Shown here one piece after another: positions 1,909 through 64,000 of a stretch of 64,000 nucleotides of DNA. The number at the start of each line of letters is the position of its first letter. Position 1 is the first letter of the stretch. The notes beneath the pieces were generated by a model. It searched no databases and was not told the origin of the DNA. It worked only from the letters and a program-made list of their open reading frames with translations. A program made the position numbers and the translations under genes. This DNA comes from Daphnia pulex (taxonomy: Eukaryota; Arthropoda; Branchiopoda; Diplostraca; Daphniidae): contig NC_060024.1 of NCBI RefSeq assembly GCF_021134715.1, positions 11,036,001 to 11,100,000 of the forward strand, read 5' to 3'.

Positions 1909-1932
1909 CACCATGCACACATCCACTGCATG

Positions 1933-1990
1933 CAACAGCTCAACTTTACAAGATTACACCTTTCACCAGCTGACTGCAACAAAACCATGC
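1933..1990 (+). repeat. CAGCTCAACTT module, copy 2
   Basis: This is the second copy, with CAACAGCTCAACTT, CACCTTTCACCAGCTG and CTGCAACAAAACCATG blocks. It is the copy closest to the palindrome version, which has CACCTTTCACCGGCTG at the matching place. Confidence 0.6.
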
Positions 1991-2375: not shown

Positions 2376-2386
2376 GCGCCATCTAG
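2376..2386 (-). promoter_or_regulatory. CTAGATGGCGC motif (possible CTCF-type site)
   Basis: On the minus strand the sequence reads CTAGATGGCGC. This resembles the AG-x-x-GGCGC core known for insect CTCF insulator sites. The same 11-mer occurs on the plus strand at 3,275-3,285. The motif is seen; insulator function is inferred. Confidence 0.3.
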
Positions 2387-39915: not shown

Positions 39916-41186
39916 ATGATGAGTGACGAAGAAAATGTGGGTGAATTTTTGAGTGTCACTCGTGCTGTACATTATCACGTTGTACACACTTGGTAAGTGC
40001 AAGTTACGTAAAAGTTATCAAAGTTAGCTTATAAAACTTACATTTTGATCATTTCAGGAGAATTGAAAGTTATGAGCAATATTTCTCAAGCACAAAATGC
40101 CATTTAACATTTATCAATTCAAGCGTTTTCGGCCACGAGGACGATCCTGGAACTAAATGGACACTTCAGTTATTTCCCAAAGGCGACAAAGAAGCTAGTT
40201 CCAATGCAATTCCAGGAACTGAGACGATTTCTTTTTTCATCAACCTGGACAAGTCATCGGACATGCCTGAACTTCCTGCCAAATACTCCGTAGAAATCCT
40301 TGGTAATTTACAGCAGAAACGATTGTCATCAATTTGAAATTTGATCGATTATTGCTTAATATTTATTCGATCAGGTGAAGATAGGATCGTACACAAAGTG
40401 ACAGGAGACAATACTTTCAAGAGAGGCAGTGGCTGGGGTCGTTCTAAATTTATGAAGATGGATGAGCTTTTAAAAGACAAGGCGGTCTTCTTAGTTAACG
40501 ATGCCATGACGATTCGCTGCACTGTCCAGTACACAAAACATATAACGAATCAGGAACGCAAGAAAAAAAGAAGAAATAGTAACAGTAGTGCGTCGACCGA
40601 GCCATCCAAGATTCTTAACACTGACACTAACTTCGACAGCCCTGGATCTCCTCAACGACTGGCACACTCATTTCCTTGGCATGATATAACTTTCGTTATT
40701 TCCGGTTCTTATGTTAGGGCGCACAAATGGATTGTGGCTGCTAGCTGCCCCTTTCTGGCGCAGTTGGTGCGTGGAGGTGAATCAGTAATCAAAGTAGAAG
40801 GAGTTGATGCCGAAGGCTTCGCCCAAATGATCCGTTTCATCTATACGGGTGAATGTGACTTGGTTAACAATAGCTACAAGTTGATGGCTGTCGCTAACAA
40901 ATTCAAACTTGAATCTTTGTTTATCAAATGTGAAGAATATCTTGTCTCGGTAAGTTATCTTAACTACTTTTTATTCCTGCACTTTCATCCTATATTTATA
41001 ATTAATACATCTCAATTGTTCGTTAACTAGATACTCAACAAGACCAGCTGCTATATGATCTACAGTGTTGGTGACATGCACTGCTCGTCGCGTCTCAAGA
41101 ATGAAGCCCTCCGAATCATTGAGAGTCTTGAATGTGGGAGCGATGGTAACAAAATGTCGATACAAGGAACTATTGCTATAATTTAA
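39916..41186 (+). CDS. MATH and BTB/POZ domain protein (SPOP-like substrate adaptor), 4 coding exons
   Basis: Exons are 39,916-39,992, 40,058-40,302, 40,375-40,949 and 41,031-41,186, giving 350 residues. A MATH/TRAF-like domain covers about residues 28-160 and a BTB domain about 211-300 (DITFVISGSYVRAHKWIVAA, FAQMIRFIYTGECD). In this family MATH binds the substrate and BTB binds cullin-3, making the protein a ubiquitin-ligase adaptor. The two domains are joined by a Lys/Ser-rich linker (about 163-190). The C-terminal segment after BTB is short and weakly like the usual SPOP tail, so nuclear localisation cannot be assumed. Two consecutive ATG codons mark the start; the first is used here. This gene type is expanded in several invertebrates, so one-to-one orthology with SPOP is not claimed. 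Confidence 0.9.
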
Positions 41187-44303: not shown

Positions 44304-44742
44304 TTAAAATGCTAAATTTTTCAATCGAAATTACAATCAATTTATATAACAGCTATACTAAATTTTAGTAAAAGCCGGTAGTGCACGTGAGCCCTTTTAT
44401 ATTTTTGACCCGAAACTGACAAGTTGTCTGCTATCCTATCTATTCATGTCTAGTTACTTACTTCCTATCTATCGACACCTGCCGGCAGGAACTTTCATCA
44501 ATGTTCGAGAGAGTCGGAGACTCAGAGGGATTGGCATTTCAACATCGCTTATCAGTTACTCACGGAAGTTCGTCTGCGGAACAGTACAAAAATCTTCACA
44601 AGTAAAACCAAAAACTCGTGTCTCGTCGGTTGTTGGCTTGTTGCTTGTTGTTGTTGCAGACTTGCAGTTGAGATTTGAAAGTTGACTCGAAGTCGAATAG
44701 TAGAAGTGTAATTTAGGGGCACGTAAGATACAGTCAGGAAAC
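44304..44742. promoter_or_regulatory. Bidirectional promoter, mEFG1 / G-patch gene
   Basis: Only 439 bp separate the start codons of two divergent genes, so they very likely share one promoter region. No TATA box stands out. Short open frames inside are not conserved proteins. Confidence 0.5.
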
Positions 44743-45446
44743 ATGTTGAGTACTAAGATTACAAAAGAAGTTATGAGAGGGAAAGCAAATTCAACTCAAG
44801 ATTGTTCCACTGACCACGCTTTTGAGATCTTATCAAAAGGTGAGAATACGATCACACAACCAGTTCAGTCTACGTCCGCTATGAGAATGATGAAATTGAT
44901 GGGTTGGACTGAGGGGACCGGGCTTGGACTGCAAAAGCAAGGAATTGTCGAACCGATAAAGTAAATTAATGTTTTGTTCCCATAGATATGATAAATTATT
45001 AGTTTAAAATATTTCATGAATACTTTTTTTTTCAGATCTGACGTGGTTGTTGGCAGAAAGGGTATTGGTTACCACGACGGTTCCAGAAATGCTGAACCAT
45101 TTGCAAAAAGTTTTCGTCGCTACCTACAGAATTATAAAAACAGCGCTTCAGTCCATAATATTGTATTTTCCAGTGAGTTTTCCAGTGAAGAGAGGAAGTT
45201 TATTCACGAGTAAGTTACAAAGAAAAAAAAAATCGAGACATTTATTAACGTTTGATTTTCTTTAGTGTTGCTCGTAAAATGGGAATGCTCTCTTCCAGCA
45301 TTGGCAAGGAGCCTAAACGTCAGTTGACTGTCCGTCGCTCCCCCTGTAAACCTCGCCCTTTAATTGAACTACTTAATCGACTCATAGAATCAAAACAATC
45401 AGATCCTCTCTTTTCTAGAATCAATCTTATTTCACCAACAGGCTAG
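44743..45446 (+). CDS. Small G-patch and R3H domain protein (NKRF-like), 3 coding exons
   Basis: Exons are 44,743-44,960, 45,036-45,209 and 45,266-45,446, giving 190 residues. Residues about 46-95 form a G-patch (MRMMKLMGWTEGTGLGLQKQ, GRKGIGY), a glycine-rich motif that activates DEAH-box RNA helicases. Residues about 115-165 resemble an R3H nucleic-acid-binding domain (SSEERKFIHDVARKMGM, RQLTVRR). The same order occurs at the C-terminus of NF-kappa-B-repressing factor, which works with XRN2 and DHX15 in ribosomal RNA processing. The protein here is far shorter than vertebrate NKRF and lacks its double-stranded RNA-binding part, so the function is inferred from domains only. Confidence 0.85.
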
Positions 45447-45478
45447 CTTCTTGAATAATATTTTTGCTTGTGAATCCC

Positions 45479-45484
45479 AATAAA
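45479..45484 (+). terminator. Poly(A) signal of the G-patch/R3H gene
   Basis: AATAAA lies 33 bp after the stop codon, at a usual distance for a short 3' untranslated region. Confidence 0.6.
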
Positions 45485-46172
45485 ATGCGTTGGATTTCAC
45501 ATTAAAGGATACGTAAGTTTATTGATTTAAATGAGTAGAATGGATTGAGTAGAATGGAAAAACTATAAAATGTCTTCATTAACTTTATTTTCACGGTAAA
45601 AAGACATACGATAAAAAAAGTAATGGCTTGATGAGTATGCGTCGACAGTTTCCCTCTGGGGGGAGAGCCAGAAGGAGGCTTTCAACCTGGAGTTAATTTG
45701 CGACATCGCCAAGCTTTAACGAATAATTTTTAAAGAGTAGTTAACTCAGAGGTTAACTGATTGGTAAGCTTAAATTAAAATAATTACACAGCATGTTGAT
45801 ACCGAAAACTATCATAACCTAGTCTTTCATGGCGCGTCAGTATACGTTCCCTACCACACGTTCCTATTTGATTACATTTGTGCTTTCCAGCCCGATCGAA
45901 TTTTAGCTGCGTGAAGATAAAGAAAGTCTAGAACCCAAATCCCAGACAACTTATATTTTATCCTGTCTCTTGGTTTATGATTATTCTTTCTGTATACAAA
46001 GTCACATGAAAAGACGAAGTCAACCGGAACGGAACAATAAAGGTAACAAGGTGTGCTGTAGTGGCGTGATTTGTTAATCATAGACATGACATCTCGAATC
46101 TGGTACGGATTTGTCTTTATTCAAGATTCCAACACAATTGTGTTTTAATCACTTTAAAAATTTGCCATTAAG
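45485..46172. other. Intergenic, no gene recognised
   Basis: The stretch between the last ordinary gene and the inverted repeat shows only short open frames on both strands. The outer limit of the inverted repeat could lie inside it, but the matching right-arm sequence is beyond the window. Confidence 0.4.
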
Positions 46173-47544
46173 CTCTGAACGTTTTGTATTCACAGTTCAC
46201 ACACGGACTTTTGGACTTTTGCCGCTTTGGCTGATTGCGGAGATGCCAGTTACCGATGCGGACGTTTTTAATTGCATAACTGAAAATGACAACGTTGCGC
46301 CTTGAACGATATTTTCAATATGGCTGCTGGCATTCGACGAGGAAATGTAGTACTTTTAATCCCGACATTTTTCGTTAGATAAATGGTAATTTCTGCTTGT
46401 ATTTTTTAAGGCTATTATTGAATGTAAAGTTTTTGTGTGGTGAATTTACAGGTAACAGCTAACAGCCTCCAATTTATACTTTGCGATTCCATTCCATCAC
46501 GTTGCCTGAAACTGCAGTACATTTTCCCAAAATGTTTCTTGCAGCATGTTGTACGTTTCGTCACATGATTTCATCACGTAATTTATTCTTTAGGATTTTA
46601 ATGTGCTTTATTGGAGGAACTCACCAAACTTGAAAATGGGAACACCAAAGTTTGCTGTGTTTATTGGGACTGTTTATTGGGACACCAAATTGGAGTGACA
46701 TGTGAATCATGACATCATGTGATGGTGTGGCACTTGCATTTGGAATCACCGTGAATAAACAAGTTTACTTATGAGTGGGGTGTTGCTTTAATCTGGCATC
46801 TTTCTCTCAACACATCCTTAATAATTAATGAAGGCAAGTAGTTTTTTTTTCATTCTGTTTGTTGGGTAGCGTTTAACACACTGTTTTTCTTTTCTCAATT
46901 TCATAGTAAACCAAGTGAGATTATTCTTGGAACAACTTTGGTCTGATGAATGAGAAATTCAAATTCTTCTTGAGTACTTGCGTGTCACGGCTTTCATGCT
47001 CTTCCACAGCCTAGATGTGTCATTAATCAAGTTGTTTTGAAAACAACCCAATAAATGTATTAGTCATAAGTAAATTAGATATATTAGTTATAAGTAAATC
47101 TTTGTGAATCTGTGCACTGTAGAAATAATGCTGTCTTTTTGTGGTTATTTTACAGGTTCTACTTCAGCTGTAGGCCTACCCCTTTCGGTTGTTACTACGA
47201 GAAAATGAGATGACATCTTGTATCAGTCTCGCCAGTATTTAAGTCATCATCGTGGTGTTGTACAAATATACAGCAAACAAGTAGATGTCTTTGCACATCC
47301 ATTAATACTGCAAAAGAATTCTTTGTTGATTAAAGAAGAAGTCCAATATCGGCTACACTCTGCAGAATAATCCATCTCGTCGCAGACTCGCAGTAAGTGA
47401 TGATTTTCCTTGTGGCGACGTTTTGAAGTAATAGGATGAAGACGGTTAATGTTTGTAATACGTTTTATCAATTTGTTGGCCATTTTTATGATTCTAAGCA
47501 TTCTAAGCAGTGGTTAAGGTTGTGAAGTTGTCAAGCCAAACCAC

Positions 47545-47632
47545 GTCATTCGTTTCCGGGACAATGTGCGGATTGTGCGGTGTTGTATCCATTACGTCGA
47601 GTTTCCAACCTTTTTCATCATCAAGATGGAAA
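47545..47632 (+). repeat. Cysteine-module relative (CGLCGVV), left arm
   Basis: It reads TMCGLCGVVSITSSFQPF, then SSSRWKG at a GTAATT donor. The C-x2-C-G-V-V pattern is like the CTFCRNVV of the 60,905 module. The mirror lies at about 62,471-62,560 on the minus strand, where the upstream frame is longer by about 50 bp. Confidence 0.4.
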
Positions 47633-48543
47633 GGTAATTTTGTTTTAGATTTTCTCCATTACTACTGTGTATGTTAAATAGTAATGTTCATGTATTTGTT
47701 TGTGGATCTATAGGTGGTTTTGCCTACAATTTCAGTCCCACTCCCAGTGTGTCATCTGGCCAAGTGGCCTGAAATTGCTGTCCGGATGCCGAAATGTCGT
47801 CTCGTACCAGAAACTTTAATGCAATGGTAACTATTTTGATATTCGTTTTTCAAAATTAAGATGTTGTAGTATTTTTATTCATTACATTTTAATTTTGATT
47901 CAACTACACTTGATTTAAAAAATGGGTTTTTGTTCCAGCTGTAAAATTACAAAAAAAAAATTTTGAAGCACCTTTGGAAGAAGTCGTTGGCATGCTAATT
48001 TCATTTTGTAACTACTGTCGGCTTCCATAGCTAATTCAATCTTTTTCCCTTAAGGTTCTGATTGCTAGATTAATTCAAGCTGTTGAATGATTGTGTTTGC
48101 TGCCAATGTGTAGATGGTGAAAGATGTGCTTGACACGAAAGAATGGTGAAAGAAGCACTTGTAGACAAGGTAATGTTTATGAATTTCGTTAAAAGAAAGC
48201 TATAAATGTCGGTGATTAAAGACGAGAGAGTAGATTTTGTTTCATCTTAGTTTCAATATACGTGAATCATTGGGCGTGGTTTTACATGATTTAATTTTCA
48301 TAATTACAACATTTTTTGTGTAATTCGAAAATCTTGTTTACTCTCGACTCCTCTGAAAAATGTCTTACATCATAACAAATTTGACCAAGTGCTTAATTCA
48401 ACTTTACTCCTGTCAATTAGATTTTACTCTTTTCAATTAAACATTATAAATCTGTTCCTTAATAGTAAGTTCACTAGTTCAGTTTGTAAAATAGGTTCAA
48501 CAGCCAGGTGATATTTCTGCATTGTTGTTTTACACAACTTGGT

Positions 48544-48600
48544 TTTTGGGTGCGGCCAGCCGGTGAAAGGTGCTATCAAATCAAGTTGAGCTGTTACATG
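48544..48600 (-). repeat. CAGCTCAACTT module, left arm copy
   Basis: On the minus strand it shows AACAGCTCAACTTGATTTGA and CACCTTTCACCGGCTGGCCG. It corresponds to copies at 1,658 and 1,933 and to the right-arm mirror at 60,443. Confidence 0.6.
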
Positions 48601-48727
48601 GAGTCTGTGGTGGCGGTGTTATCCTGGAGTGTGTTGGTGTTCTGACTGTTTGTGTTTAGTGTATTCTCCTCGTCAGAACATTTTTTCATCCTCGATTGAA
48701 AGTAGGTTAGCATATAGATGTAGATAA

Positions 48728-48980
48728 GTGCACATCTGGGCTCCCTCTTCTCTGGTCCCGTTTCCCTAATTAACTAACGCCCGCCGGTGGTCGCTCATTA
48801 TGAAACTAGGAGGATGAGGAGGGCTCTGGTCGAACGGGGACTTGAAAGGTTGATGATCCGATGAAAACTTTTGGAAGATCATGAATCTAATTAGGAATCC
48901 TACTATGATTAATCGAACCTAGCAAAACTTGTCTCGCACTCTTCTCTCTTCTTCCATGTCCAGGGAATCTACCTGGGCAG
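48728..48980 (-). repeat. Dispersed repeat R1, copy B
   Basis: On the minus strand this reads in the same order as copy A: AGATTCATGATCTTCC, AAGTCCCCGTTCGACCAGAG, GGAAACGGGACCAG and CCCAGATGTGC. It is mirrored at 60,062-60,315 in the right arm. Confidence 0.75.
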
Positions 48981-49248
48981 AGTCTCCCCCTGTCTTGATT
49001 GGTTGGACTTTGTAGGAGTAAAGTAAAAAGTGAATTATTTAAACCTTGTCCGATACAAGAGCTTAAATTGGTAACATGGAAAATAATTATAATAAATAAA
49101 TTAACAAGAAAAATGAAATTAACCTGAAATATATAGTACGTTATACGGTCATAGCAAAATTTACAAATACAACATTGATAATCTTCTATTTATTTTCCAT
49201 GCTTACGTTTCGTTATCCTTATATGTTATATGTTGCATGGATGTGACA

Positions 49249-49430
49249 TGACAGACGAACAACACATTGAAATATGCCACCAAAGACAGTAGCAGCTTTA
49301 AGCACACTTATCACCATCTCCTCATTGGGCTTGAACATCATACAACCATCACAACCTGCAGGGAAAAAGACAGATTTTGCTTCAAACAGGAATAGATATA
49401 CCACAGGCCAGGCCCACTGAAGAAGTTAAA
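49249..49430 (+). pseudogene. Unrecognised short coding-like frame, left arm
   Basis: A frame starting MPPKTVAALSTLITISSLGL runs about 48 codons to a stop. The right-arm mirror at 59,761-59,537 (-) keeps the first 26 residues but shifts frame after IIQPS. Such decay in one arm suggests that any coding role is lost. No family is recognised, and chance is possible. Confidence 0.25.
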
Positions 49431-50389
49431 AAAATAACAATTACCCTCATCTCACATCCAGAATTGTCAATCAACTACTTCTGCACCAAGTTTCCTAGTA
49501 AGATAATTCTCTTTTTGGTGAAGTCCTAATTCAAAATTACACATAACAGTGAACATGGAAATGAAAGAAAATGAAAGGACTTCAATCTGCCTAACCAATT
49601 TCATTACATGGCCAGTATCTAGAGTGAGGATCAAATGAGCCAGGAACATGCTGTTGTTGCGAGACAAGATAGTGTGGAAAGGTTTTTAAACTTTACCATC
49701 ATATTTTTTTGACTTAACATTTGCTGTTGCCTTGTAGTAAACCACTTTAACGAATAGAAAAAAAAAATCTGAACAACTGGCAGATTTACCTTACCAACTC
49801 GTATTTTTCCTTTCAGCAATCCACTGTCCAAGTGCTGTTGCCCGGGTGCTAAAACGTCTGGAATCACTAACAGATGCCATAGACAAGGCACATAAACGAA
49901 TGTCAAGAGTCCTTCTCCTCACTGTAGAAGTTGGACTGACGTCCATTAACGATTTCGTCTGTTGCGGTCTCGGTCTGTTGTTTTGTGTGGTGCTGCGGTG
50001 GTGGCTTTTTTTGGTGAAGACTAAAGACGAGATATAAATTTGGAGGGGAGACTATTACGTGAGTATCAACTATCAAATATATTTGCCTTTGTTTGTTGGA
50101 TCTTTCAATTAAGTACTAACTGATAACGAGCTAGAGCGGACATTGCTTTTAACTTTTAAGTTTTATGTTTCTTTTAAACGTTTCTTCTTTCTGACGCTAG
50201 ACACTGTAGACAGCTTAGCCTTTGATCATTTTTGATTTTTAACTAAAAGAAGCATCAGTTTAGTTACGTTTATGCAGTCCACTGTAAGAAGCATTAGTTT
50301 AGTAACGTTTACTTTGCACATCTCTGAAGAAATTTCTCGCTTCCACAATAACGAAATTTTGGGTGATAACTGCCAGTTTCTGTTTCAGC

Positions 50390-50777
50390 AACAAAGCTCA
50401 CTTGTTAGATTTTTAATAATGTGATTTTTTTCTACTTCCGGTTTTCTCATTTCTGTCAATAGTTTAATAAATATTCATCTGACGCACAAAAGAACCACAT
50501 TTTCGTGATCCTCGTAAAATGTGTGGTAAAGTTCATGTTTTTTTTTGTACGTTCGCGTACTTCCGGTTTCGAGAATTATCCTGAACTATAGTTCAGGAAA
50601 AATTTCGATTTTGACCAAATTCTGGATTTCTTTTAAATTACACCTAATCGACCCCAAATTTCACGTAGATCATGAATTTTTGGTTTATTTTGTCGACAGC
50701 TCAATGGTTAAGGAGCTATCCCTTACTTCCGGTATACTTCCGGAAAATTTGCATGAAACTAACAAGTGAGCTTTGTT
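50390..50777. mobile_element. MITE-like element with 19-bp perfect terminal inverted repeats (left arm)
   Basis: AACAAAGCTCACTTGTTAG at 50,390-50,408 is matched exactly, in reverse complement, by CTAACAAGTGAGCTTTGTT at 50,759-50,777. The 388-bp interior has no open frame for a transposase and contains ACTTCCGG strings several times, plus a small palindrome CTGAACTATAGTTCAG near 50,580. It is non-autonomous. No target-site duplication is obvious right outside the repeats, so the superfamily is not assigned. Confidence 0.75.
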
Positions 50778-51877
50778 CTCTGTAGAATTCTATAGATTCC
50801 GTGCTAATTTAAGCAAAGAGAAATGGTCTTTTTGATTACTTTTATGACTTGTGACTATCTAAGGTCATTCCTTTAGATATTGAGTTTTGAACGTGTCAAA
50901 TAGATGGCGTGAAAGAATGTTGTTTGTTGTGTCACATATGGGCTAATGGCGGTTCGTTGTCAAAAGTTCAGCTACAGCTATCTTCTTCGAAAATTACCAA
51001 TGAATTCGTTGGTAAATTGACTAGATTTCCTGTGCAATTTGTTTTGCATGTGTTGTTTACTGAATATGTGTTTAATAACATCATTATTTCTCCTCCATTT
51101 CCAGGAAAAAATGTGAAAGGTGCATGAAGCCAGTACTGTCAACTATTGTGTTGGTATCCTACAGAATATGTCATCCAAATGACAGAGAGTGGTAACAACC
51201 AATGCTAGCTTTAGTAAAGTATTGCTGGAACATAGTCAATCTTCTCATCTTTTATTAGGATTCATCACTATTATCGGCTGAATCATTCTATGAGACTTGC
51301 CAGATTGCAACCCAAGCATGGACCAATTTCTTATTCCATCTTCTAGAGAACCTTACATAACCGATTGGTGGTTTAGTGTGTAAGTTTACTTGTCATGTCA
51401 CTGAACTTATTTTGTTGCAGTCCTATATGTATTTAAAGTATTGTTCTGCACTTAAGTCTATCTAATGTTTGAGTTTAATTATTCTTTTAGATCATAGACA
51501 TTAAGCACATTGATGCCACAAATTATAGACAAGGTTACTTTATTTTTTATTTACAGGTTTTAGGTTTCTAATGTAGCATGATAGACTTTATGAGAAGTCA
51601 TGTTGTTTGAAGAAAAAGGACTATACAGTCGACAAGGTTCTTTGGTAACCCGTTGGCTGCTACCCTTGAATCTCCCTGTTTACTTCCTTACACGGGTCCA
51701 CTTGATTTGAGGTACTGCTTTCTGTTGCTACAACCTCGTTTGAATATTTTCCAAATAAATGTTCATTCTGCTTACAGGGTAATCCTTCGCTACTGATCAC
51801 ACCCACGCTGGTGAAAACCGACGAGAGAATGCTGTAATCCAAGACTGATAGATTGTGTAGTTGTTAGATAAATGACA

Positions 51878-52133
51878 AGTGCATATCTGGGCTCCCTTCT
51901 TTTCTGTGGCCCCGTTTCCCTAACTAACCACTAACCAACGCCCGCCGGTGGTCACTCACCCGCTGTGAAACCAGGAGGAGGGGAGGGCTCTGGTCGAACG
52001 GGGACTTGGAAGGCGCATGATCCGATGAAAACTTGTGGAGGGTCATGAGTCTAACCCGGAAGCCTAGTATGACTACATCTCCCCGGAAAAACTTGCCTCG
52101 TACTTCTCTCTTTTTCTCGGTCCAGATACTTAT
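51878..52133 (-). repeat. Dispersed repeat R1, copy C
   Basis: The minus strand shows CTTCCGGGTTAGACTCATGA, CCCCGTTCGACCAG and GGCGGGCGTTGGTTAGTG. It is the mirror of copy D and is closer in sequence to copy A at the window start than are copies B and E. Confidence 0.75.
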
Positions 52134-52170
52134 CTCTGGGGGCCGTAGACATGTCCTATAACAGCATGTG

Positions 52171-52593
52171 CGATTTAAACAATGCAACCCACTACCCAAT
52201 GAAACAAATAGCCATGGTTTATGTTTTGCGCAAATCTGCGTTAGTCAAGTTACAAATTTTTCCTATTCCACAACTCGCGTAGAATTTTGCATGTAATCTA
52301 TTAGTGCAAATCGCCATTCCATGTGTTTGGTAGTTAAGAAAATGGTTGTTTAAGAAACAAACAATGGGGTGTTCTGAGTAGCCAAAAAAACTCACCATTG
52401 TTTGTTTTTTAAACAACCATCAACTACCAAACACATAGGATAGCTATTTGCACCAGTATAGTAGATGCAAAATTCAACAGAAGTTATTGATTATGAAAAA
52501 CTTGTAACCTAACTGACGCAGATTTCCGCAAAACTAAACCATCGCTTTTTGTCTCATTGCCGCAGCGGTGGTGGCGGGTTGCGTTTAAACTCG
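52171..52593. mobile_element. Fold-back element, ~420 bp imperfect hairpin (left arm)
   Basis: Two halves of about 200 bp are imperfect reverse complements around position 52,380. Paired blocks include ATTGTTTGTTT against AAACAAACAAT, CTACCAAACACAT against ATGTGTTTGGTAG, and GTTTAAAC-type ends. It would fold into one long stem. It contains no conserved open frame and fits a fold-back MITE, though the family is unknown. Confidence 0.65.
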
Positions 52594-53639
52594 TGCAGAA
52601 GAAAATGGTTTTGAACCGGACGCTCTGTTTATTGAATTTTTTGAACATTTTAAAAAGAAAATAAAAATTATTTCATATAGTGTGTTTTTTTTTATTTATT
52701 ACAGATATTACATGGTTAAGGTTTAACATTGGTTTATAGGGTTAAGGGTATAGATTTAAGGGTTGATAGGTGTATGTTATCGGGGTTTGAAGGATTGGAA
52801 GGTACAAGTCTGTGGGGCTTGGAGTTTAATTGGTAGGGATACATTTGTAGGGTTATAGATTAAATGAATTTTTATCCAAACTTGAAATATCCTCCTTCCC
52901 CCCTCATACATCCACCACTTTCCCAACCCCAAAAACATGTTTATTATTTGTTTGACATGAACATCCCATATTTGTTTTTGTTGCTTCTGAACTTATAAAC
53001 GATTAAACGGTAAACTGCAAGTCACGATGACAATTTAACAAAATATGATGCAACTTCGGTAACACAACATCAGCACCAAGGAACGGCCAGTTGAACTTGA
53101 TGTAGAAAGAAATTTCACCAGCATAGGTTTCAACAACGTGCCACATCGGACAGCAACTACGCGAACATAAAACACTAAACCTATTAACAAAATGAAATTA
53201 ATTAATCTAGATGAATAAATGTCACTTTACGTTATTTACAAGAGTTAAAGCACTCAGCTGGCTGCATCAAATCCATGTGTACGTTGGGCAGCAACAAAGA
53301 AGCTCATACTTTTACTAGACTGATAATCCTATTTATAAAAAAAAAACTAAATTACTATCAACTATCAAGGAAACAATGTCTTAAATTACAAAAACAAAAA
53401 AGACAGAAGTCAAAGTAAACTATGCAAACACAATCCTTCAGAATAAAAGTTGCAAAAGAACCTACAGGCCTACAGCTAGCAAGCATTAACAAGGTAGACA
53501 ACTGAAAAATCTACAACAAATAAGGTAAGAGATAGTCACCGACTTACTAAGTCTGTAGTCTCACAGTCAGAAAGTTGAACATATTTACCTGAATAGTTCT
53601 GAAGTGTTTCTTACAAAACGTACAGCCGGTACAGGAAAC

Positions 53640-54292
53640 AGAGGAATTTATCCTTGGCATGGTTGTCCAATTTCAACGAGCTCAATTTCACCTACATGAG
53701 GGGAGAAAAGAGTTACTTATAACAGGAAATCAAATGCGGTTTTGTTTTCTTCTTTTCAGACCTGGAGTGTTACAATTCTGGCTCGGCATCACTCAATGAG
53801 GGGAAAGAATTGAGGTAATCACTAGTTGTGATTGTGATAGGTAAATGATTTTCAATCTTTTCATTGGTATCCAACTCTTACGGCACTCTGTGAAGAACTC
53901 TATAAACAAATAATGGTTAAAGCTTTATTAAACTATCTATTATACTGCAGCCTGCAGGATTCTCACTTTTCAATGCTTGGCATTTGTCTCTCAATTCAAT
54001 AGTGGGTGGTGTCAAGTGAAGAAAGTTGGTGATCTTCATCAACTCTACCTTGGCAAATTTACCGGGTGGTGTTGCCCCCGGAACAACCCAGCCCTGATGC
54101 AACTATGCAAGGCCAGCAGGACACTAGCTGGATGGAAAGACCTGGCACCTGGCCTAACTGAGGCCCAGTCTTGATCAAAAGCTCGTTATGTTTGAACGTG
54201 AACTGCTGCTCTCTTGTATACTTTAAGTCCGTAAGATCTCATATTCAACGACTTGTTCGGACTCAGATCCAGCGAACGGAGTTCGTCATCTC
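53640..54292 (-). pseudogene. MRPS35: Decayed mitochondrial ribosomal protein mS35 (MRPS35) gene copy with introns
   Basis: Minus-strand exon-like pieces are 54,292-53,967, 53,899-53,762 and 53,691 to about 53,640. They read in order FDQDWASVRPGARSFHPASV, then PPGKFAKVELMKITNFLHL, then ELDTNEKIENHLPI and SDYL, then VKLSSLKLDNHAKDKF. These match the mS35 order as I recall it (DQDW, FKPSAVPL, IPNFLHLTP, DEKCEKHFPIEID, VKLSSLNLDDHAK). mS35 is a small-subunit protein of the mitochondrial ribosome. Introns with a GTGAGA donor and AG acceptors are kept at the expected places, so this is a DNA-level duplicate, not a retrocopy. The first piece has an in-frame TAA and a frame change, the second also changes frame, and the third runs into unrelated repeat sequence. 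The true start exon and the C-terminal half are absent. Confidence 0.8.
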
Positions 54293-55099
54293 CTAATAAA
54301 TTTAAACAGAAAGCAGGTTACACGTTACAGCACATGCCATTCAGGCATTCACGAATAATCTAATGATACTCACCGCCATTGTAAAAAGATGATAGTTACT
54401 ATACACTTTTTGAATTTTTTCATTTTTGCGAAATGATGTGGGACAATTAGAAATGGGTCTAGTTGACACAAACTGCTGAAATTACGTAGGTTGACAATCG
54501 TGTGCAGACATTTTATTTGACTCTTTTTTAGCAGACTATAATACAAGTTTCATAGCCATCTATGATTCACATTTACAACTACTCATATTGAACAATAAGT
54601 CTTCGCTCGCCGAGTCTCCGCCATTTTTTTTCGAACACCGATCGTTATTCGTATCGTTATTCGTACAGCGTATTTTCTTTCCTCACATATTTCTTCATAG
54701 AAATGGTATTTCCCGTTTGGATTGTTAGATGTTACTGAATCTTAATTATTTGTGTGTGAATTTAGTTATTTGTGTGGTAACCTAGCCTATAATTTCTACT
54801 TGGAAATTCCAGCTGATCATGTGCAGAGATGCAGAGCCTGAGTACATTTTGCCAAGATGTCGTCTCTTTTTCCTGTACCGGCTGTACGTTTCGTAAGAAA
54901 CAATTCAGAAGAAATCAGATAAATATGTTCAACTTTCGAACTGTGAGATTTAAGTTAGTTGGTAACTATGTCTTAACTTGCCTGTTGTAGAACTTTAGTT
55001 GTCTATCTTGGAAAAGCTTGCTAGCTGTAGGTTCCTTTGCAACATTTATTCCAAAGAATTGTGTAGTTAACTTTAACTTCATTTGAGATCCTGTGTCCT
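53945..55099. other. Central spacer of the inverted repeat
   Basis: This stretch of about 1.15 kb is not mirrored between the two sides. The left half holds the 5' part of a decayed mS35 gene. The right half holds a diverged second copy (54,842-55,085) of a sequence that also lies in the right arm at 55,380-55,640. Homology between the arms stops at TATTATA on both sides. Confidence 0.85.
54842..54919 (+). repeat. Cysteine-rich exon-like module, spacer copy
   Basis: In one frame it reads TFCQDVVSFSCTGCTFRKKQ. It closely resembles the right-arm module at 55,406-55,455, which reads SCTGCTFCKKHFRTIQ before a GTAAAT donor. At the matching place this copy has ATAAAT, so the donor is lost. Confidence 0.5.
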
Positions 55100-55144
55100 T
55101 ATAATAGATATTTTGATAAAGCTTTAACCATTATTTGTTTATAG

Positions 55145-55400
55145 AGTTCTTCACAGAGTGCCGTAAGAGTTGGATACCAATGAAAAGATTGAAAATCATT
55201 TACCTATCACAATCACAACTAGTGATTACCTCAATTCTTTCCCCTCATTGAGTGATGCCGAGCCAGAATTGTAACACTCCAGGTCTGAAAAGAAGAAAAC
55301 AAAACCGCATTTGATTTCCTGTTATAAGTAACTCTTTTCTCCCCTCATGTAGGTGAAATTGAGCTCGTTGAAATTGGACAACCATGCCAAGGATAAATTC
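55145..55400 (+). pseudogene. MRPS35: Second copy of the 3' mS35 exon fragments, right arm
   Basis: This is the mirror image of the left-arm exons at 55,145-55,282 and from 55,353 to about 55,400, on the plus strand. The 5' exon present at 54,292-53,967 is missing here because the palindrome boundary (about 55,100) lies within the preceding intron. It is non-functional for the same reasons as the left copy. Confidence 0.75.
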
Positions 55401-55405
55401 CTCTG

Positions 55406-55455
55406 TTTCCTGTACCGGCTGTACGTTTTGTAAGAAACACTTCAGAACTATTCAG
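55406..55455 (+). repeat. Cysteine-rich exon-like module, right arm copy
   Basis: This module reads SCTGCTFCKKHFRTIQ and ends at CAG followed by GTAAATATG, a good splice donor. The C-x2-C-x2-C spacing hints at a small zinc-binding motif. It begins directly after the mS35-like VKLSSLKLDNHAKDKF piece in another frame. The mirror copy in the left arm lies at about 53,589-53,638 on the minus strand. Confidence 0.5.
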
Positions 55456-56449
55456 GTAAATATGTTCAACTTTCTGACTGTGAGACTACAGACTTAGTAA
55501 GTCGGTGACTATCTCTTACCTTATTTGTTGTAGATTTTTCAGTTGTCTACCTTGTTAATGCTTGCTAGCTGTAGGCCTGTAGGTTCTTTTGCAACTTTTA
55601 TTCTGAAGGATTGTGTTTGCATAGTTTACTTTGACTTCTGTCTTTTTTGTTTTTGTAATTTAAGACATTGTTTCCTTGATAGTTGATAGTAATTTAGTTT
55701 TTTTTTATAAATAGGATTATCAGTCTAGTAAAAGTATGAGCTTCTTTGTTGCTGCCCAACGTACACATGGATTTGATGCAGCCAGCTGAGTGCTTTAACT
55801 CTTGTAAATAACGTAAAGTGACATTTATTCATCTAGATTAATTAATTTCATTTTGTTAATAGGTTTAGTGTTTTATGTTCGCGTAGTTGCTGTCCGATGT
55901 GGCACGTTGTTGAAACCTATGCTGGTGAAATTTCTTTCTACATCAAGTTCAACTGGCCGTTCCTTGGTGCTGATGTTGTGTTACCGAAGTTGCATCATAT
56001 TTTGTTAAATTGTCATCGTGACTTGCAGTTTACCGTTTAATCGTTTATAAGTTCAGAAGCAACAAAAACAAATATGGGATGTTCATGTCAAACAAATAAT
56101 AAACATGTTTTTGGGGTTGGGAAAGTGGTGGATGTATGAGGGGGGAAGGAGGATATTTCAAGTTTGGATAAAAATTCATTTAATCTATAACCCTACAAAT
56201 GTATCCCTACCAATTAAACTCCAAGCCCCACAGACTTGTACCTTCCAATCCTTCAAACCCCGATAACATACACCTATCAACCCTTAAATCTATACCCTTA
56301 ACCCTATAAACCAATGTTAAACCTTAACCATGTAATATCTGTAATAAATAAAAAAAAACACACTATATGAAATAATTTTTATGTTCTTTTTAAAATGTTC
56401 AAAAAATTCAATAAACAGAGCGTCCGGTTCAAAACCATTTTCTTCTGCA

Positions 56450-56872
56450 CGAGTTTAAACGCAACCCGCCACCACCGCTGCGGCAATGAGACAAAAAGCG
56501 ATGGTTTAGTTTTGCGGAAATCTGCGTCAGTTAGGTTACAAGTTTTTCATAATCAATAACTTCTGTTGAATTTTGCATCTACTATACTGGTGCAAATAGC
56601 TATCCTATGTGTTTGGTAGTTGATGGTTGTTTAAAAAACAAACAATGGTGAGTTTTTTTGGCTACTCAGAACACCCCATTGTTTGTTTCTTAAACAACCA
56701 TTTTCTTAACTACCAAACACATGGAATGGCGATTTGCACTAATAGATTACATGCAAAATTCTACGCGAGTTGTGGAATAGGAAAAATTTGTAACTTGACT
56801 AACGCAGATTTGCGCAAAACATAAACCATGGCTATTTGTTTCATTGGGTAGTGGGTTGCATTGTTTAAATCG
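56450..56872. mobile_element. Fold-back element, right arm mirror copy
   Basis: Mirror image of 52,171-52,593. Together the two copies form small hairpins nested inside the giant palindrome. Confidence 0.65.
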
Positions 56873-56909
56873 CACATGCTGTTATAGGACATGTCTACGG
56901 CCCCCAGAG

Positions 56910-57165
56910 ATAAGTATCTGGACCGAGAAAAAGAGAGAAGTACGAGGCAAGTTTTTCCGGGGAGATGTAGTCATACTAGGCTTCCGGGTTAGACTCATGA
57001 CCCTCCACAAGTTTTCATCGGATCATGCGCCTTCCAAGTCCCCGTTCGACCAGAGCCCTCCCCTCCTCCTGGTTTCACAGCGGGTGAGTGACCACCGGCG
57101 GGCGTTGGTTAGTGGTTAGTTAGGGAAACGGGGCCACAGAAAAGAAGGGAGCCCAGATATGCACT
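56910..57165 (+). repeat. Dispersed repeat R1, copy D
   Basis: Plus-strand mirror of copy C, in the right arm. The central blocks are the same as in copy A. Confidence 0.75.
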
Positions 57166-58265
57166 TGTCATTTATCTAACAACTACACAATCTATCAGTC
57201 TTGGATTACAGCATTCTCTCGTCGGTTTTCACCAGCGTGGGTGTGATCAGTAGCGAAGGATTACCCTGTAAGCAGAATGAACATTTATTTGGAAAATATT
57301 CAAACGAGGTTGTAGCAACAGAAAGCAGTACCTCAAATCAAGTGGACCCGTGTAAGGAAGTAAACAGGGAGATTCAAGGGTAGCAGCCAACGGGTTACCA
57401 AAGAACCTTGTCGACTGTATAGTCCTTTTTCTTCAAACAACATGACTTCTCATAAAGTCTATCATGCTACATTAGAAACCTAAAACCTGTAAATAAAAAA
57501 TAAAGTAACCTTGTCTATAATTTGTGGCATCAATGTGCTTAATGTCTATGATCTAAAAGAATAATTAAACTCAAACATTAGATAGACTTAAGTGCAGAAC
57601 AATACTTTAAATACATATAGGACTGCAACAAAATAAGTTCAGTGACATGACAAGTAAACTTACACACTAAACCACCAATCGGTTATGTAAGGTTCTCTAG
57701 AAGATGGAATAAGAAATTGGTCCATGCTTGGGTTGCAATCTGGCAAGTCTCATAGAATGATTCAGCCGATAATAGTGATGAATCCTAATAAAAGATGAGA
57801 AGATTGACTATGTTCCAGCAATACTTTACTAAAGCTAGCATTGGTTGTTACCACTCTCTGTCATTTGGATGACATATTCTGTAGGATACCAACACAATAG
57901 TTGACAGTACTGGCTTCATGCACCTTTCACATTTTTTCCTGGAAATGGAGGAGAAATAATGATGTTATTAAACACATATTCAGTAAACAACACATGCAAA
58001 ACAAATTGCACAGGAAATCTAGTCAATTTACCAACGAATTCATTGGTAATTTTCGAAGAAGATAGCTGTAGCTGAACTTTTGACAACGAACCGCCATTAG
58101 CCCATATGTGACACAACAAACAACATTCTTTCACGCCATCTATTTGACACGTTCAAAACTCAATATCTAAAGGAATGACCTTAGATAGTCACAAGTCATA
58201 AAAGTAATCAAAAAGACCATTTCTCTTTGCTTAAATTAGCACGGAATCTATAGAATTCTACAGAG

Positions 58266-58653
58266 AACAAAGCTCACTTGTTAGTTTCATGCAAATTTTC
58301 CGGAAGTATACCGGAAGTAAGGGATAGCTCCTTAACCATTGAGCTGTCGACAAAATAAACCAAAAATTCATGATCTACGTGAAATTTGGGGTCGATTAGG
58401 TGTAATTTAAAAGAAATCCAGAATTTGGTCAAAATCGAAATTTTTCCTGAACTATAGTTCAGGATAATTCTCGAAACCGGAAGTACGCGAACGTACAAAA
58501 AAAAACATGAACTTTACCACACATTTTACGAGGATCACGAAAATGTGGTTCTTTTGTGCGTCAGATGAATATTTATTAAACTATTGACAGAAATGAGAAA
58601 ACCGGAAGTAGAAAAAAATCACATTATTAAAAATCTAACAAGTGAGCTTTGTT
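58266..58653. mobile_element. MITE-like element, right arm mirror copy
   Basis: This is the mirror image of 50,390-50,777 with the same 19-bp ends. It was present before the inverted duplication formed, because both arms carry it at the same place. Confidence 0.75.
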
Positions 58654-60061
58654 GCTGAAACAGAAACTGGCAGTTATCACCCAAAATTTCGTTATTGTGG
58701 AAGCGAGAAATTTCTTCAGAGATGTGCAAAGTAAACGTTACTAAACTAATGCTTCTTACAGTGGACTGCATAAACGTAACTAAACTGATGCTTCTTTTAG
58801 TTAAAAATCAAAAATGATCAAAGGCTAAGCTGTCTACAGTGTCTAGCGTCAGAAAGAAGAAACGTTTAAAAGAAACATAAAACTTAAAAGTTAAAAGCAA
58901 TGTCCGCTCTAGCTCGTTATCAGTTAGTACTTAATTGAAAGATCCAACAAACAAAGGCAAATATATTTGATAGTTGATACTCACGTAATAGTCTCCCCTC
59001 CAAATTTATATCTCGTCTTTAGTCTTCACCAAAAAAAGCCACCACCGCAGCACCACACAAAACAACAGACCGAGACCGCAACAGACGAAATCGTTAATGG
59101 ACGTCAGTCCAACTTCTACAGTGAGGAGAAGGACTCTTGACATTCGTTTATGTGCCTTGTCTATGGCATCTGTTAGTGATTCCAGACGTTTTAGCACCCG
59201 GGCAACAGCACTTGGACAGTGGATTGCTGAAAGGAAAAATACGAGTTGGTAAGGTAAATCTGCCAGTTGTTCAGATTTTTTTTTTCTATTCGTTAAAGTG
59301 GTTTACTACAAGGCAACAGCAAATGTTAAGTCAAAAAAATATGATGGTAAAGTTTAAAAACCTTTCCACACTATCTTGTCTCGCAACAACAGCATGTTCC
59401 TGGCTCATTTGATCCTCACTCTAGATACTGGCCATGTAATGAAATTGGTTAGGCAGATTGAAGTCCTTTCATTTTCTTTCATTTCCATGTTCACTGTTAT
59501 GTGTAATTTTGAATTAGGACTTCACCAAAAAGAGAATTATCTTACTAGGAAACTTGGTGCAGAAGTAGTTGATTGACAATTCTGGATGTGAGATGTTATT
59601 GTTATTTTTTTAACTTCTTCAGTGGGCCTGGCCTGTGGTATATCTATTCCTGTTTGAAGCAAAATCTGTCTTTTTCCCTGCACTGATGGTTGTATGATGT
59701 TCAAGCCCAATGAGGAGATGGTGATAAGTGTGCTTAAAGCTGCTACTGTCCTTGGTGGCATATTTCAATGTGTTGTTCGTCTGTCATGTCACATCCATGC
59801 AACATATAACATATAAGGATAACGAAACGTAAGCATGGAAAATAAATAGAAGATTATCAATGTTGTATTTGTAAATTTTGCTATGACCGTATAACGTACT
59901 ATATATTTCAGGTTAATTTCATTTTTCTTGTTAATTTATTCTTTATTATAATTATTTTCCATGTTACCAATTTAAGCTCTTGTATCGGACAAGGTTTAAA
60001 TAATTCACTTTTTACTTTACTCCTGCAAAGTCCAACCAATCAAGACAGGGGGAGACTCTGC

Positions 60062-60315
60062 CCAGGTAGATTCCCTGGACATGGAAGAAGAGAGAAGAGT
60101 GCGAGACAAGTTTTGCTAGGTTCGATTAATCATAGTAGGATTCCTAATTAGATTCATGATCTTCCAAAAGTTTTCATCGGATCATCAACCTTTCAAGTCC
60201 CCGTTCGACCAGAGCCCTCTCATCCTCCTAGTTTCATAGCGAGTGAGCGACCACCGGCGAGCGTTGGTTAATTATTAGGGAAACGGGACCAGAGAAGAGG
60301 AAGCCCAGATGTGCC
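60062..60315 (+). repeat. Dispersed repeat R1, copy E
   Basis: Plus-strand mirror of copy B. It is followed about 130 bp later by the CAGCTCAACTT module (60,443). Copy A at the window start is also followed by such modules, though at a greater distance, so R1 and this module may belong to one larger repeat unit. Confidence 0.75.
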
Positions 60316-60442
60316 ATTATCTACATCATAACCTACTTCAATCGAAAATGAAAAATTGTTATCTGACGAAGAGAATACACTTAACACAAACAGTCAGAAC
60401 ACCAACACACTCCAGGATAACACCGCCACCACAGACTCCATG

Positions 60443-60502
60443 TAACAGCTCAACTTGATTTGATAGCACCTTTCACCGGCTGGCCGCACCCAAAAACCAA
60501 GT
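60443..60502 (+). repeat. CAGCTCAACTT module, right arm copy
   Basis: Mirror of 48,544-48,600. It is close to the copy at 1,933-1,990, with CACCTTTCACC followed by GGCTG instead of AGCTG. Confidence 0.6.
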
Positions 60503-60885
60503 TGTGTAAAACAACAATGCAGAAATATCACCTGGCTGTTGAACCTATTTTACAAACTGAACTAGTGAACTTACTATTAAGGAACACATTTATAATGTTT
60601 AATTGAAAAGAGTAAAATCTAATTGACAGGAGTAAAGTTGAATTAAGCACTTGGTCAAATTTGTTATGATGTAAGACATTTTTCGGAGGAGTCGAGAGTA
60701 AACAAGATTTTCGAATTTCACAAAAAAATGTTGTAATTATTAAAATTAAATCATGTAAAACCACGCCCAATGATTCACGTATATTGAAACTAAGATGAAA
60801 CAAAATCTACTCTCTCGTCTTTAATCACCGACATTTATAGCTTTCTTTTAACGAAATTCATAAACATTATTACCTTGTCTACAAG

Positions 60886-61942
60886 CAGCAAGACACACGA
60901 GGCCAGTAGGAGGTACAACATTTCGGCAAAATGTACAGGTAGTTTCAAGTCCGATGATTTTGGCAAAGTGCTTTTTACATGCTAAATCACCCACAAATTT
61001 TACAAATCGATATTTTACATTAATTAAACATTAGATATAAAAGCAGAAATACCTTTCAATTTTCAATTTTAACAAGGTAAACGTCAAGACCATCAAATTT
61101 GGCTGCGTCTTGGAACAGAATGGCTGAATTTTTCCGTCCTTGAACACACCCGCGTTCCCTGGTGGACATTTTAGCCAACTATAGCGACAGCCAATAGATT
61201 TCTGTTCAAATGACTGAACGGAACGACTGGATATTGCTTGATTGCTTGCTGGAATTCGTCACGCCTTCCACTAGCTGGCACGAAACGAATCAAATGAGGA
61301 TGAAGACTAGATTACTCCAGCATATTTCCCTATGACACAACACACAAATGATTTGATTAGCTATTTCTAACTTTCCTTATTTTTTCCAACATAAAAATCT
61401 ATAATATTAACAGAGAGCTTGGGATTCAAGAAAATATAAAACACAATTGTCTGAAGAAATAGAATAACTTTTCTGCCTGTGCGCCTGTGCCTGTGCGGCA
61501 GCAGCAGCTGTTAGGGTTGGAGTTCTGACTAACTTTGTCATCAAACAGTTAAACATGTTGAATCTAAAGGAAATGTGTCAATTAATATAAAATTGTTTCT
61601 GGTTTCTGCAAAATGGACAGCAATGAATCCATGTGATCAGATAATTTTGCCAAGTGGAATTTAGCTTTGGACAGGAAAAGCTGTTTCACATGTAAAGCAC
61701 ATGAAGATAAAACAAAAAAGCAATTATATCATCTTTCTTTAATTAAGGCTTCAGCACTAAATCTCTTTTTGACTGGTCCTTACATTTCTTTACATTTTCT
61801 GACATCTATATTGAAACAATCTAATTCTAATCATTAAGACAAAAAACCTGTAAAAAAACCATGTGTCCAGAGAAGCTGAAGAAGGTAAGAAAAGCAACTG
61901 TAGATTCACCAACACCAGCATAGACAACAGCAGCTTGTTTCG
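60886..61942. repeat. Right-arm-specific segment with cysteine-module copies
   Basis: About 1.06 kb is absent from the left arm, where about 20-25 bp lie at the equivalent place (48,140-48,165). On the minus strand its edge at about 60,975-60,886 reads CKKHFAKIIG, then CTFCRNVVPP and CLAACRQ, ending at a GTAATG donor. Around 61,600-61,680 a weaker copy reads CPFCRN. No complete gene is evident. It may be an insertion in the right arm or a deletion from the left. Confidence 0.6.
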
Positions 61943-64000
61943 CGTCAAGCACATCTTTCACCATCTACACATTGGCAGCAAACACAATCATTCAACAGCT
62001 TGAATTAATCTAGCAATCAGAACCTTAAGGGAAAAAGATTGAATTACCTATGGAAGCCGACAGTAGTTACAAAATGAAATTAGCATGCCAATGACTTCTT
62101 CCAAAGGTGCTTCAACATTTTTTTTTTGTAATTTTACAGCTGGAACAAAAACCCATTTTTTAAATCAAATGTAGTTGAATCAAAATTAAAATGTAATGAA
62201 TTACCAAAATAAGGAATGTACTGAATAAAAATACTACAACATCTTAATTTTGAAAAACGAATATCAAAATAGTTACCATTGCATTAAAGTTTCTGGTACG
62301 AGACGACATTTCGGCATCCGGACAGCAATTTCAGGCCACTTGGCCAGATGACACACTGGGAGTGGGACTGAAATTGTAGGCAAAACCACCTATAGATCCA
62401 CAAACAAATACATGAACATTACTATTTAACATACACAGTAGTAATGGAGAAAATCTAAAACAAAATTACCTTTCCATCTTGATGATGAAAAAGGTTGGAA
62501 ACTCGACGTAATGGATACAACACCGCACAATCCGCACATTGTCCCGGAAACGAATGACGTGGTTTGGCTTTCAAAGACCACCTCTGGTTGACGAATTCGA
62601 ACCCCACCTATTGACAACATGACAACTTCACAACCTTAACCACTGCTTAGAATGCTTAGAATCATAAAAATGGCCAACAAATTGATAAAACGTAGAACAA
62701 ACATTAACCGTCTTCATCCTATTACTTCAAAACGTCGCCACAAGGAAAATCATCACTTACTGCGAGTCTGCGACGAGATGGATTATTCTGCAGATTGCAG
62801 CCGATATTGGACTTCTTCTTTAATCAACAAAGAATTCTTTTGCAGTATTAATGGATGTGCAAAGACATCTACTTGTTTGCTGTATATTTGTACAACACCA
62901 CGATGATGACTTAAATACTGGCGAGACTGACACAAGATGCCATCTCATTTTCTCGTAGTAACAACCGAAAGGGGTAGGCCTACAGCTGAAGTAGAACCTG
63001 TAAAATAACAAAAAAAAAAAAACAGCATTATTTCTACAGTGCACAGATTCACAAAGATTTACTTATAACTAATATATCTAATTTACTTATGACTAATACA
63101 TTTATTGGGTTGTTTTCAAAACAACTTGATTAATGACACATCTAGGCTATGGAAGAGCATGAAAGCCATGACACGCAAGTACTCAAGAAGAATTTGAATT
63201 TCTCATTCATCAGACCAAAGTTGTTCCAAGAATAATCTCACTTGGTTTACTATGAAATTGAAAAAAGAAAAACAGTGTGTTAAACGCTACCCAACAAACA
63301 GAATGAAAAAAAAAAAAAAACTACTTGCCTTCATTAATTATTAAGGATGTGTTGAGAGAAAGATGCCAGATTAAAGCAACACCCCACTCATAAGTAAACT
63401 TGATTTTACACGGTGATTCCAAATGCATGTGCCACACCATCACATGATTCACATGTCACTCCAATTTGGTGACCCAATAAACAGTCCCAATAAACACAGC
63501 AAACTTTGGTGTTTCCATTTTCGAGTTTGGTGAGTTCCTCCAATAAGGCACATTAAAATCCTAAAGAATAAATTACGTGACGAAATCATGTGACGAAACG
63601 TACAACATGCTGCAAGAAACATTTTGGGAAAATGTACTGCAGTTTCAGGCAACGTGATGGAATGGAATCGCAAAATATAAATTGGAGGCTGTTAGCTGTT
63701 ACCTGTAAATTCACCACACAAAAACTTTACATTCAATAATAGCCTTAAAAAATACAAGCAGAAATTACCATTTATCTAACGAAAAATGACGGGAATGAAT
63801 GTACTACATTTCCTCGTCGAATGCCAGCAGCCATATTGAAAAATTGAAAATATCGTTCAAGGCGCAACGTTGTCATTTTCAGTTATGCAATTAAAAACGT
63901 CCGCATCGGTAACTGGCATCTCCGCAATTGCAGCAATCAGCCAAAGCGGCAAAAGTCCAAAAGTCCGACTGTGTGAACTGTGAATACAAAATGTTCAGAC

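What the first reader, a model, noticed from the sequence alone, without database searches (positions are those of the whole stretch)
46173..64000. Giant inverted repeat with arms of at least 8 kb
Reading one side as the reverse complement of the other gives continuous matches over almost 18 kb, around a centre near 54,522. Palindromes of this size are rare in assemblies. They could be a real head-to-head duplication, a fold-back structure, or two haplotypes joined wrongly. The roughly 1.06-kb length difference and the scattered differences speak against a simple read-through artefact, but not against a haplotype joining error.
Basis: seen in the sequence. Interest (0 to 1): 0.8.

Follow-up and report, generated by a model that had tools for sequence, protein, structure and literature searches.

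The report
Family of self-homogenising giant palindromes
A stretch of about 21,000 bases reads almost the same on both strands; it looks real rather than an assembly error, belongs to a family of such mirror structures scattered over an animal's chromosomes, and its two halves appear to have been copied over each other.

Summary
The inverted repeat is real in the sequence and larger than reported: window 44,739 to 65,445, running 1.4 kb beyond the window, with arms of 9.2 and 10.3 kb around a 1.16-kb centre.

Two haplotypes joined wrongly is unlikely. The flanks are unrelated. The right arm ends inside a coding frame of a gene that continues into the right flank; the left arm holds only that gene's 3' part. 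The same centre, with both junctions, lies 1 Mb away. Related sequence forms facing inverted pairs at 30 loci on 7 contigs.

Best mechanism: arm-to-arm gene conversion. The inner 4.4 kb of the arms has 3 mismatches; 45,900-49,499 differs by 1.65%. Arms of one locus are sisters in 10 of 16 loci; 6 keep older, different arms. A private substitution sits on both arms.

Most surprising: a ~250-bp, apparently non-coding block in each arm, 97-100% alike on five chromosomes, with 290 close copies.

Converting palindromes are known; a dispersed family with such a block looks like a new variant. No reads could be examined; the species (probably Daphnia pulex) is inferred.

The parts
44739..53944 (+). 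Left arm of the palindrome
   Evidence: aligns to the reverse complement of 55,100-65,445
55100..64000 (-). Right arm; continues outside the window to 65,445 (C8:11,101,445)
53945..55099 (+). Centre (core) between the arms; relatives of it at other loci
   Evidence: 40 candidates scored of 106; 14 of the 20 loci returned have inverted flanks within 1.5 kb
49500..53944 (+). Homogenised inner tract of the left arm: 3 mismatches and 1 gap column against the right arm
55100..59544 (-). Homogenised inner tract of the right arm (mirror)
   Evidence: mirror coordinates by sum 109,044
60886..61934 (-). 1.05-kb segment present in the right arm only; probably lost from the left arm
44743..45443 (+). Truncated copy of a gene with G-patch and (weak) R3H matches, starting 4 bases inside the left arm; the other copy continues beyond the right arm with XTBD exons
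   Evidence: The name NKRF-like is recalled from the domain set
51880..52149 (+). Ultraconserved block 'beta', left arm
56895..57164 (-). Ultraconserved block 'beta', right arm (mirror)
48723..48963 (+). Second, diverged beta-like block, left arm (79% to beta)
60075..60314 (-). Second, diverged beta-like block, right arm
52197..52559 (.). Self-complementary stretch inside the left arm (79% to its own reverse complement); missing in part from some relatives
56484..56846 (.). The same self-complementary stretch in the right arm

Best explanation
This is a true chromosomal palindrome and one member of a dispersed family built from a mostly non-coding unit of some 9 kb, placed as two inverted copies whose inner ends face each other across a core. 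Shown by sequence: the palindrome, its relatives, the shared facing orientation, the patchy identity between the arms, and the truncated gene at one end only. Inferred: after the palindrome existed, one arm served as repair template for the other, and long tracts were copied across (gene conversion), which keeps the arms alike while different loci drift apart. Also inferred: at least once the copying ran past the end of the repeated unit into the neighbouring gene and so lengthened the left arm with the 3' part of that gene. How the units first came to lie head to head and spread is not shown; ends that vary between copies and the lack of a visible target-site duplication favour copying by repair or segmental duplication over a cut-and-paste element.
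For: (1) Flanks beyond 44,739 and 65,445 are unrelated, and the right end lies inside an open coding frame (65,301-65,669, minus strand) that continues upstream with XTBD exons, while the left arm starts 4 bases before an internal ATG of that frame. (2) The locus at C8:12.08 Mb shares the whole centre: 97.7% over 2 kb, both core-arm junctions aligned without a break. (3) In the four arms of the two loci, 52 sites group the arms by locus, 1 by side; the right arm here differs alone at 2 sites, its counterpart there at 144. (4) Tree of 38 arm segments from 22 loci: the two arms are sisters in 10 of the 16 loci where both were found; in the other 6 they are not. (5) A T-to-G change in the beta block is on both arms here; the exact 41-base string with G occurs twice in the genome, once per arm, and the 11 other copies that I could read all have T. 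(6) Arm identity steps from 3 mismatches in 4.4 kb to 1.65% in 45,900-49,499. (7) Orientation: 11 of 11 paired arm hits, 9 of 9 paired beta hits, and 16 of the 17 neighbouring beta copies within 10 kb face each other, the remaining one being tandem, among the 100 listed of 290.
Against: No reads, coverage or second assembly could be examined. For several members the arms are 99.5-99.9% alike, which taken singly could be artefact or very recent duplication. In the tree the pair of this locus has support 96/76 only, because one arm of the 12.08-Mb locus is nearly as close. The side-of-core labels do not form clades (at least 13 changes), so the older arm split rests on 6 loci. The odd arm of the 12.08-Mb locus could have been replaced from a third locus instead. 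Two dispersed sub-blocks (49,597-49,964, and part of 60,886-61,934) also occur as pairs in the opposite arrangement (C12 at 8.99 Mb; C8 at 12.31 Mb), so the facing orientation holds for the arms and beta, not for every repeat inside them.
Confidence: 0.8

Rival explanations
1. Assembly error: two haplotypes, or a fold-back read, were joined head to head.
For: Some members have arms that are almost identical (99.87% over 7.8 kb at C8:11.40 Mb); the gene-conversion reading needs no fewer assumptions for such a case alone. No read data were available.
Against: Unrelated flanks and a gene cut at one end only; the same centre and both junctions at a second locus; loci with the same layout but arms of only 82-92% identity; indels including the 1.05-kb segment.
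Confidence: 0.07
2. A foldback-type transposable element: a mobile DNA whose long inverted arms are its terminal repeats and which moves as a whole.
For: Dispersed family on many contigs, constant arm orientation, and whole-palindrome relatives at other loci.
Against: Outer ends differ between copies: arms extend past the shared part with sequence of their own at C8:11.40 Mb and C4:2.02 Mb and at C2:4.05 Mb, and the ends of five copies do not line up. No target-site duplication or common terminal motif was visible to the eye at three palindromes. No frame longer than 106 residues lies in the arms. Copies group by chromosome.
Confidence: 0.25
3. Each palindrome arose recently and separately in place by inverted duplication; no gene conversion is needed.
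For: High identity of arms at 10 of 16 loci; outer parts are locus-specific; the truncated gene shows that duplication in place did happen here.
Against: The core with both junctions is shared with a second locus, so the palindrome is older than the split of the two, yet its arms are more alike to each other (99.92%) than to the matching arm there (98.4%). In 6 of 16 loci the arms are not sisters, which in-place duplication would not give.
Confidence: 0.12

Closest known systems
Palindromes of mammalian X and Y chromosomes (arm-to-arm gene conversion; PMC8981503 and PMC3723533, listing and start of abstract seen)
   Same: Large inverted arms over 99% alike, kept alike by conversion between the arms, with a non-repeated centre
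   Different: Those lie on sex chromosomes and often hold testis genes; here the arms are mostly non-coding, the family is dispersed over at least 7 contigs, and members share a core and an ultraconserved block
Conserved long inverted repeats of Caenorhabditis (PMC1803023; outline, abstract and passages read)
   Same: Invertebrate; inverted structure and high identity between the arms within a species, with the sequences themselves diverging between species
   Different: Those are paralogous gene pairs with arms up to about 2.2 kb in the passages seen; here arms reach 10 kb, carry no gene pair as their core, and recur as one sequence family
Palindromes reported in Adineta vaga and Folsomia candida (PMC7953838; passages and section 14 read)
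   Same: Intrachromosomal inverted blocks proposed as substrates for gene conversion in animals that reproduce without sex
   Different: Those were found as gene-colinear blocks and the authors warn of misassembly; D. pulex was one of three species that study could not screen. A gene-based screen would miss mostly non-coding arms

Membership tests
Palindrome maintained by arm-to-arm gene conversion | Two long inverted arms of very high identity around a short unlike centre | tested here: met
Palindrome maintained by arm-to-arm gene conversion | Palindrome older than the identity of its arms (concerted evolution) | tested here: met
   core and junctions shared with a second locus, arms more alike within than between; based on paralogous loci, not on sister species
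Palindrome maintained by arm-to-arm gene conversion | Private derived changes present on both arms | tested here: met
Palindrome maintained by arm-to-arm gene conversion | Conversion seen among individuals of a pedigree or population | not testable with these tools
   No population reads at hand
Foldback-type or other inverted-repeat transposon | Constant outer ends with a target-site duplication | tested here: not met
   inspected by eye at three palindromes and on five outer ends, so weak duplications could be missed
Foldback-type or other inverted-repeat transposon | Transposase in the element or in a relative | tested here: inconclusive
   No frame over 106 residues in the arms and no domain match in the arm frames submitted, apart from the host gene part and a sub-threshold PCI match; a separate autonomous partner was not searched for
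Two haplotypes joined wrongly | Flanks on both sides are alleles of each other | tested here: not met

The most novel reading that the evidence does not exclude
The palindromes are a functional chromosomal system rather than debris: a roughly 250-bp non-coding block present in some 290 copies acts as the element under selection (for example a promoter pointing at the palindrome centre, or a site where repair starts), the inverted layout lets its copies be repaired from each other, and this keeps the block nearly unchanged across chromosomes while the rest of the arms drifts.
Probability: 0.25. Interest if true: 0.85.

Novelty: new variant of a known kind. Interest (0 to 1): 0.6.

Why it matters
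Gene conversion between palindrome arms has been studied mainly on sex chromosomes that lack a partner. If the reading holds, an animal whose chromosomes are (as recalled for Daphnia) not of that kind carries dozens of such palindromes of one sequence family, some with old unlike arms and some freshly homogenised, so that rate, tract length and direction of conversion can be measured in one genome. The ultraconserved non-coding block, kept in hundreds of copies inside drifting arms, asks for a function or a homogenising process that can be tested directly.

Tried and rejected
RNA genes: no Rfam family at gathering score in 110 kb and no match up to E = 5 around beta; folding of beta is no better than shuffles (z 0.96 and 1.03); no tRNA in the window.

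Coding in the arms: 36 open frames of 60 residues or more in left arm plus core, against 12-26 in ten single-base shuffles, an excess that partly reflects the gene fragment at the outer end and was not pursued further. The 106-residue frame over beta stays open in 5 of 6 copies, which could be read as coding, but its variable columns fall evenly on codon positions (11, 13, 9) and one copy is broken; a 79-residue frame gives 20, 22, 21. I take both as non-coding. No Pfam match for either.

Beta in viral contigs: no exact match to a 41-base part. Beta as a dispersed short insertion: every long arm hit that spans the site aligns through it, so no empty site was seen, among the 34 candidates scored of 1,010.

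A linear copy on C1 was read to look for fixed ends and a coding part; it is colinear with the arm at 64-78%, has both beta-like blocks, printed no frame of 110 residues or more, and gave no clear end.

Species: inferred only from 133,188,837 bases in 13 contigs, against 133.2 Mb given for D. pulex in passages of PMC12926508, and GC near 40%; 12 chromosomes for D. pulex is recalled.

Literature on Daphnia palindromes: searches listed no paper whose title or shown abstract describes such a family; most subscription papers and preprints are not held.
Full report
Observation. The window is bases 11,036,001-11,100,000 of contig C8 in a genome of 133,188,837 bases and 13 contigs. Self-comparison confirms a giant inverted repeat centred at 54,522. 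With neighbouring DNA it spans 44,739-65,445. The inner 49,500-53,944 of the left arm has 3 mismatches and 1 gap column against the right arm; 45,900-49,499 has 59 mismatches in 3,576 aligned bases (1.65%), in patches of 0 to 3% per 400 bases; 45,100-45,899 has 3 in 799. The 1.05-kb segment 60,886-61,934 is in the right arm only, and a single-arm relative at C8:11.64 Mb has it too.

Not a joining error. Beyond the arms the two flanks are unrelated. The left flank has a frame with an EF-Tu-type GTPase domain (43,652-44,152; taken as mitochondrial EF-G by recall). On the right, the arm ends at 65,445 inside an open frame (65,301-65,669, minus strand) with a G-patch match; two frames further out match XTBD (4e-20 and 4.9e-7). 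The left arm starts 4 bases before an internal ATG of the same frame and holds only the 3' part of the gene. A 180-residue query from the left copy strongly matches the two arms only; two other places match weakly at 34-40%. So the right copy is the original and the outer end of the left arm is a copy of it. The combination XTBD, G-patch and R3H suggests NKRF; the R3H matches are below Pfam's cut-off and the name is recalled.

A family. A 2-kb query over the centre has a full-length match at C8:12.08 Mb (97.7-98%) and matches at many loci at 79-91%. Both junctions between core and arms align without a break there. Of 20 loci returned for the core alone, 14 have inverted flanks within 1.5 kb, at 82-99.7% identity. 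Pairing the 37 long arm hits gives 11 pairs, all with inner ends facing. Pairing 40 beta hits gives 9 pairs, all facing. The exact-string search found 290 beta copies, of which 100 were listed, all without a mismatch; among neighbours within 10 kb, 16 face, 1 is tandem, none point away, whereas within 100 kb all four arrangements occur. The union is 30 loci on C1, C3, C4, C6, C8, C9 and C10. Ten of these rest on paired beta hits alone in that tally; one of the ten (C9:8.23 Mb) was then read and has arms 99.86% alike. Counts are lower bounds because only the best candidates are scored. Two dispersed sub-blocks also occur as pairs pointing away from each other (C12:8.99 Mb; C8:12.31 Mb), so the rule is for arms and beta. 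Further palindromes lie at C8:11.02-11.04 Mb, C8:11.39-11.41 Mb, C4:2.01-2.02 Mb and C2:4.05-4.06 Mb; outside the part they share, at least the C8:11.39, C4 and C2 ones have symmetric outer arms of their own.

Gene conversion. A 691-base arm segment was sought in 22 loci; both arms were found in 16, one in 6, giving 38 rows. In the tree the arms of a locus are sisters in 10 of 16: C3 at 0.21, 0.70, 0.84 and 1.05 Mb, C4 2.02, C6 3.28 and 4.69, C8 11.09 (this one, support 96/76) and 11.40, and C10 15.90. In 6 they are not: C3 11.75, C6 1.23, 3.42 and 3.70, C8 12.08 and C10 15.06. The side-of-core label needs at least 13 changes on the tree and is no more clustered than shuffled labels. In four arms of this locus and the 12.08-Mb locus, 52 sites group arms by locus, 1 by side, 144 have the far arm there alone different, 2 the right arm here alone different; arms here are 99.92% alike, against 98.4% to the matching arm there. 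In the 12.08-Mb locus the unlike sites are sparse between about 50,970 and 52,470 and dense on either side, as after a partial conversion. Finally, one base in beta is G on both arms here and T in the 11 other copies read; the exact 41-base string with G occurs only on these two arms, though copies with a second change in that string would be missed.

Ultraconserved block. In six copies from C4, C6 (two), C8, C9 and C10 the 50-base steps from 51,896 to 52,145 have mean pairwise identities of 97-100%, while most other steps lie between 73 and 94%; 52,246-52,445 and 52,546-52,595 are also high (91-98%). The left edge is sharp: no variable column from 51,890 to 51,969 and 4 to 7 per ten just before 51,880. 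A linear copy on C1, otherwise 64-78% alike, has the 51-base string unchanged. It is not an Rfam family, does not fold better than shuffles, and shows no codon pattern. Selection on a non-coding function, or homogenisation confined to the block, are both open.

How it may work. Two inverted copies on one chromosome can pair; a break in one arm can be repaired from the other. Long-tract copying explains identity that stops abruptly at about 49.5 kb, and copying beyond the end of the repeated unit explains the gene fragment on the left. These steps are inferred. What set up the first head-to-head pair is unknown. A transposon with fixed ends is less likely: ends vary and no target duplication was visible at three palindromes.

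Comparison with what is known. Conversion between palindrome arms is described for mammalian sex chromosomes (PMC8981503, PMC3723533: listings), and Caenorhabditis has long inverted repeats whose arms are alike within species (PMC1803023: abstract, passages). A survey of asexual animals screened 23 of 26 species for gene-based palindromes and left out D. pulex for lack of annotation (PMC7953838: passages and section 14). I know of no description of this family from the searches named; the library lacks most subscription papers.

Limits. One assembly, no reads, species inferred, candidate lists capped, and three of the giant members have arms so alike that, taken alone, they could not be told from artefact.

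Noticed in passing
window 1-2783 (C8:11,021,639-11,038,783): The first 2.8 kb of the window belong to the right arm of another giant palindrome: arms 7.8 kb, 99.09% alike, 1.57-kb centre. It shares only a beta-like (window 724-926) and an alpha-like block with the main one, and its arms hold tyrosine- and threonine-rich frames.
   Followed up: partly
window 51880-52149 and 290 places in the genome: Ultraconserved, apparently non-coding block of about 250 bp inside otherwise diverged repeats; function unknown.
   Followed up: partly
window 67414-68822 (C8:11,103,414-11,104,822), right of the window: A small inverted repeat, arms about 317 bp at 97%, just beyond the XTBD gene.
   Followed up: no
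C8:11,394,055-11,410,088 (L018, L019, L041, L042): A 16-kb palindrome whose arms are 99.87% alike over 7.8 kb with hardly any centre; its middle is made of short repeats of a GACAGTAGAACTCC-like motif.
   Followed up: partly
C7:23,059-24,427 and C7:72,387-73,757: Two core copies 50 kb apart in opposite orientation near a contig end, each with an arm segment found on one side only.
   Followed up: no
window 40035-41030: MATH-BTB type gene frames next to the EF-G gene.
   Followed up: no
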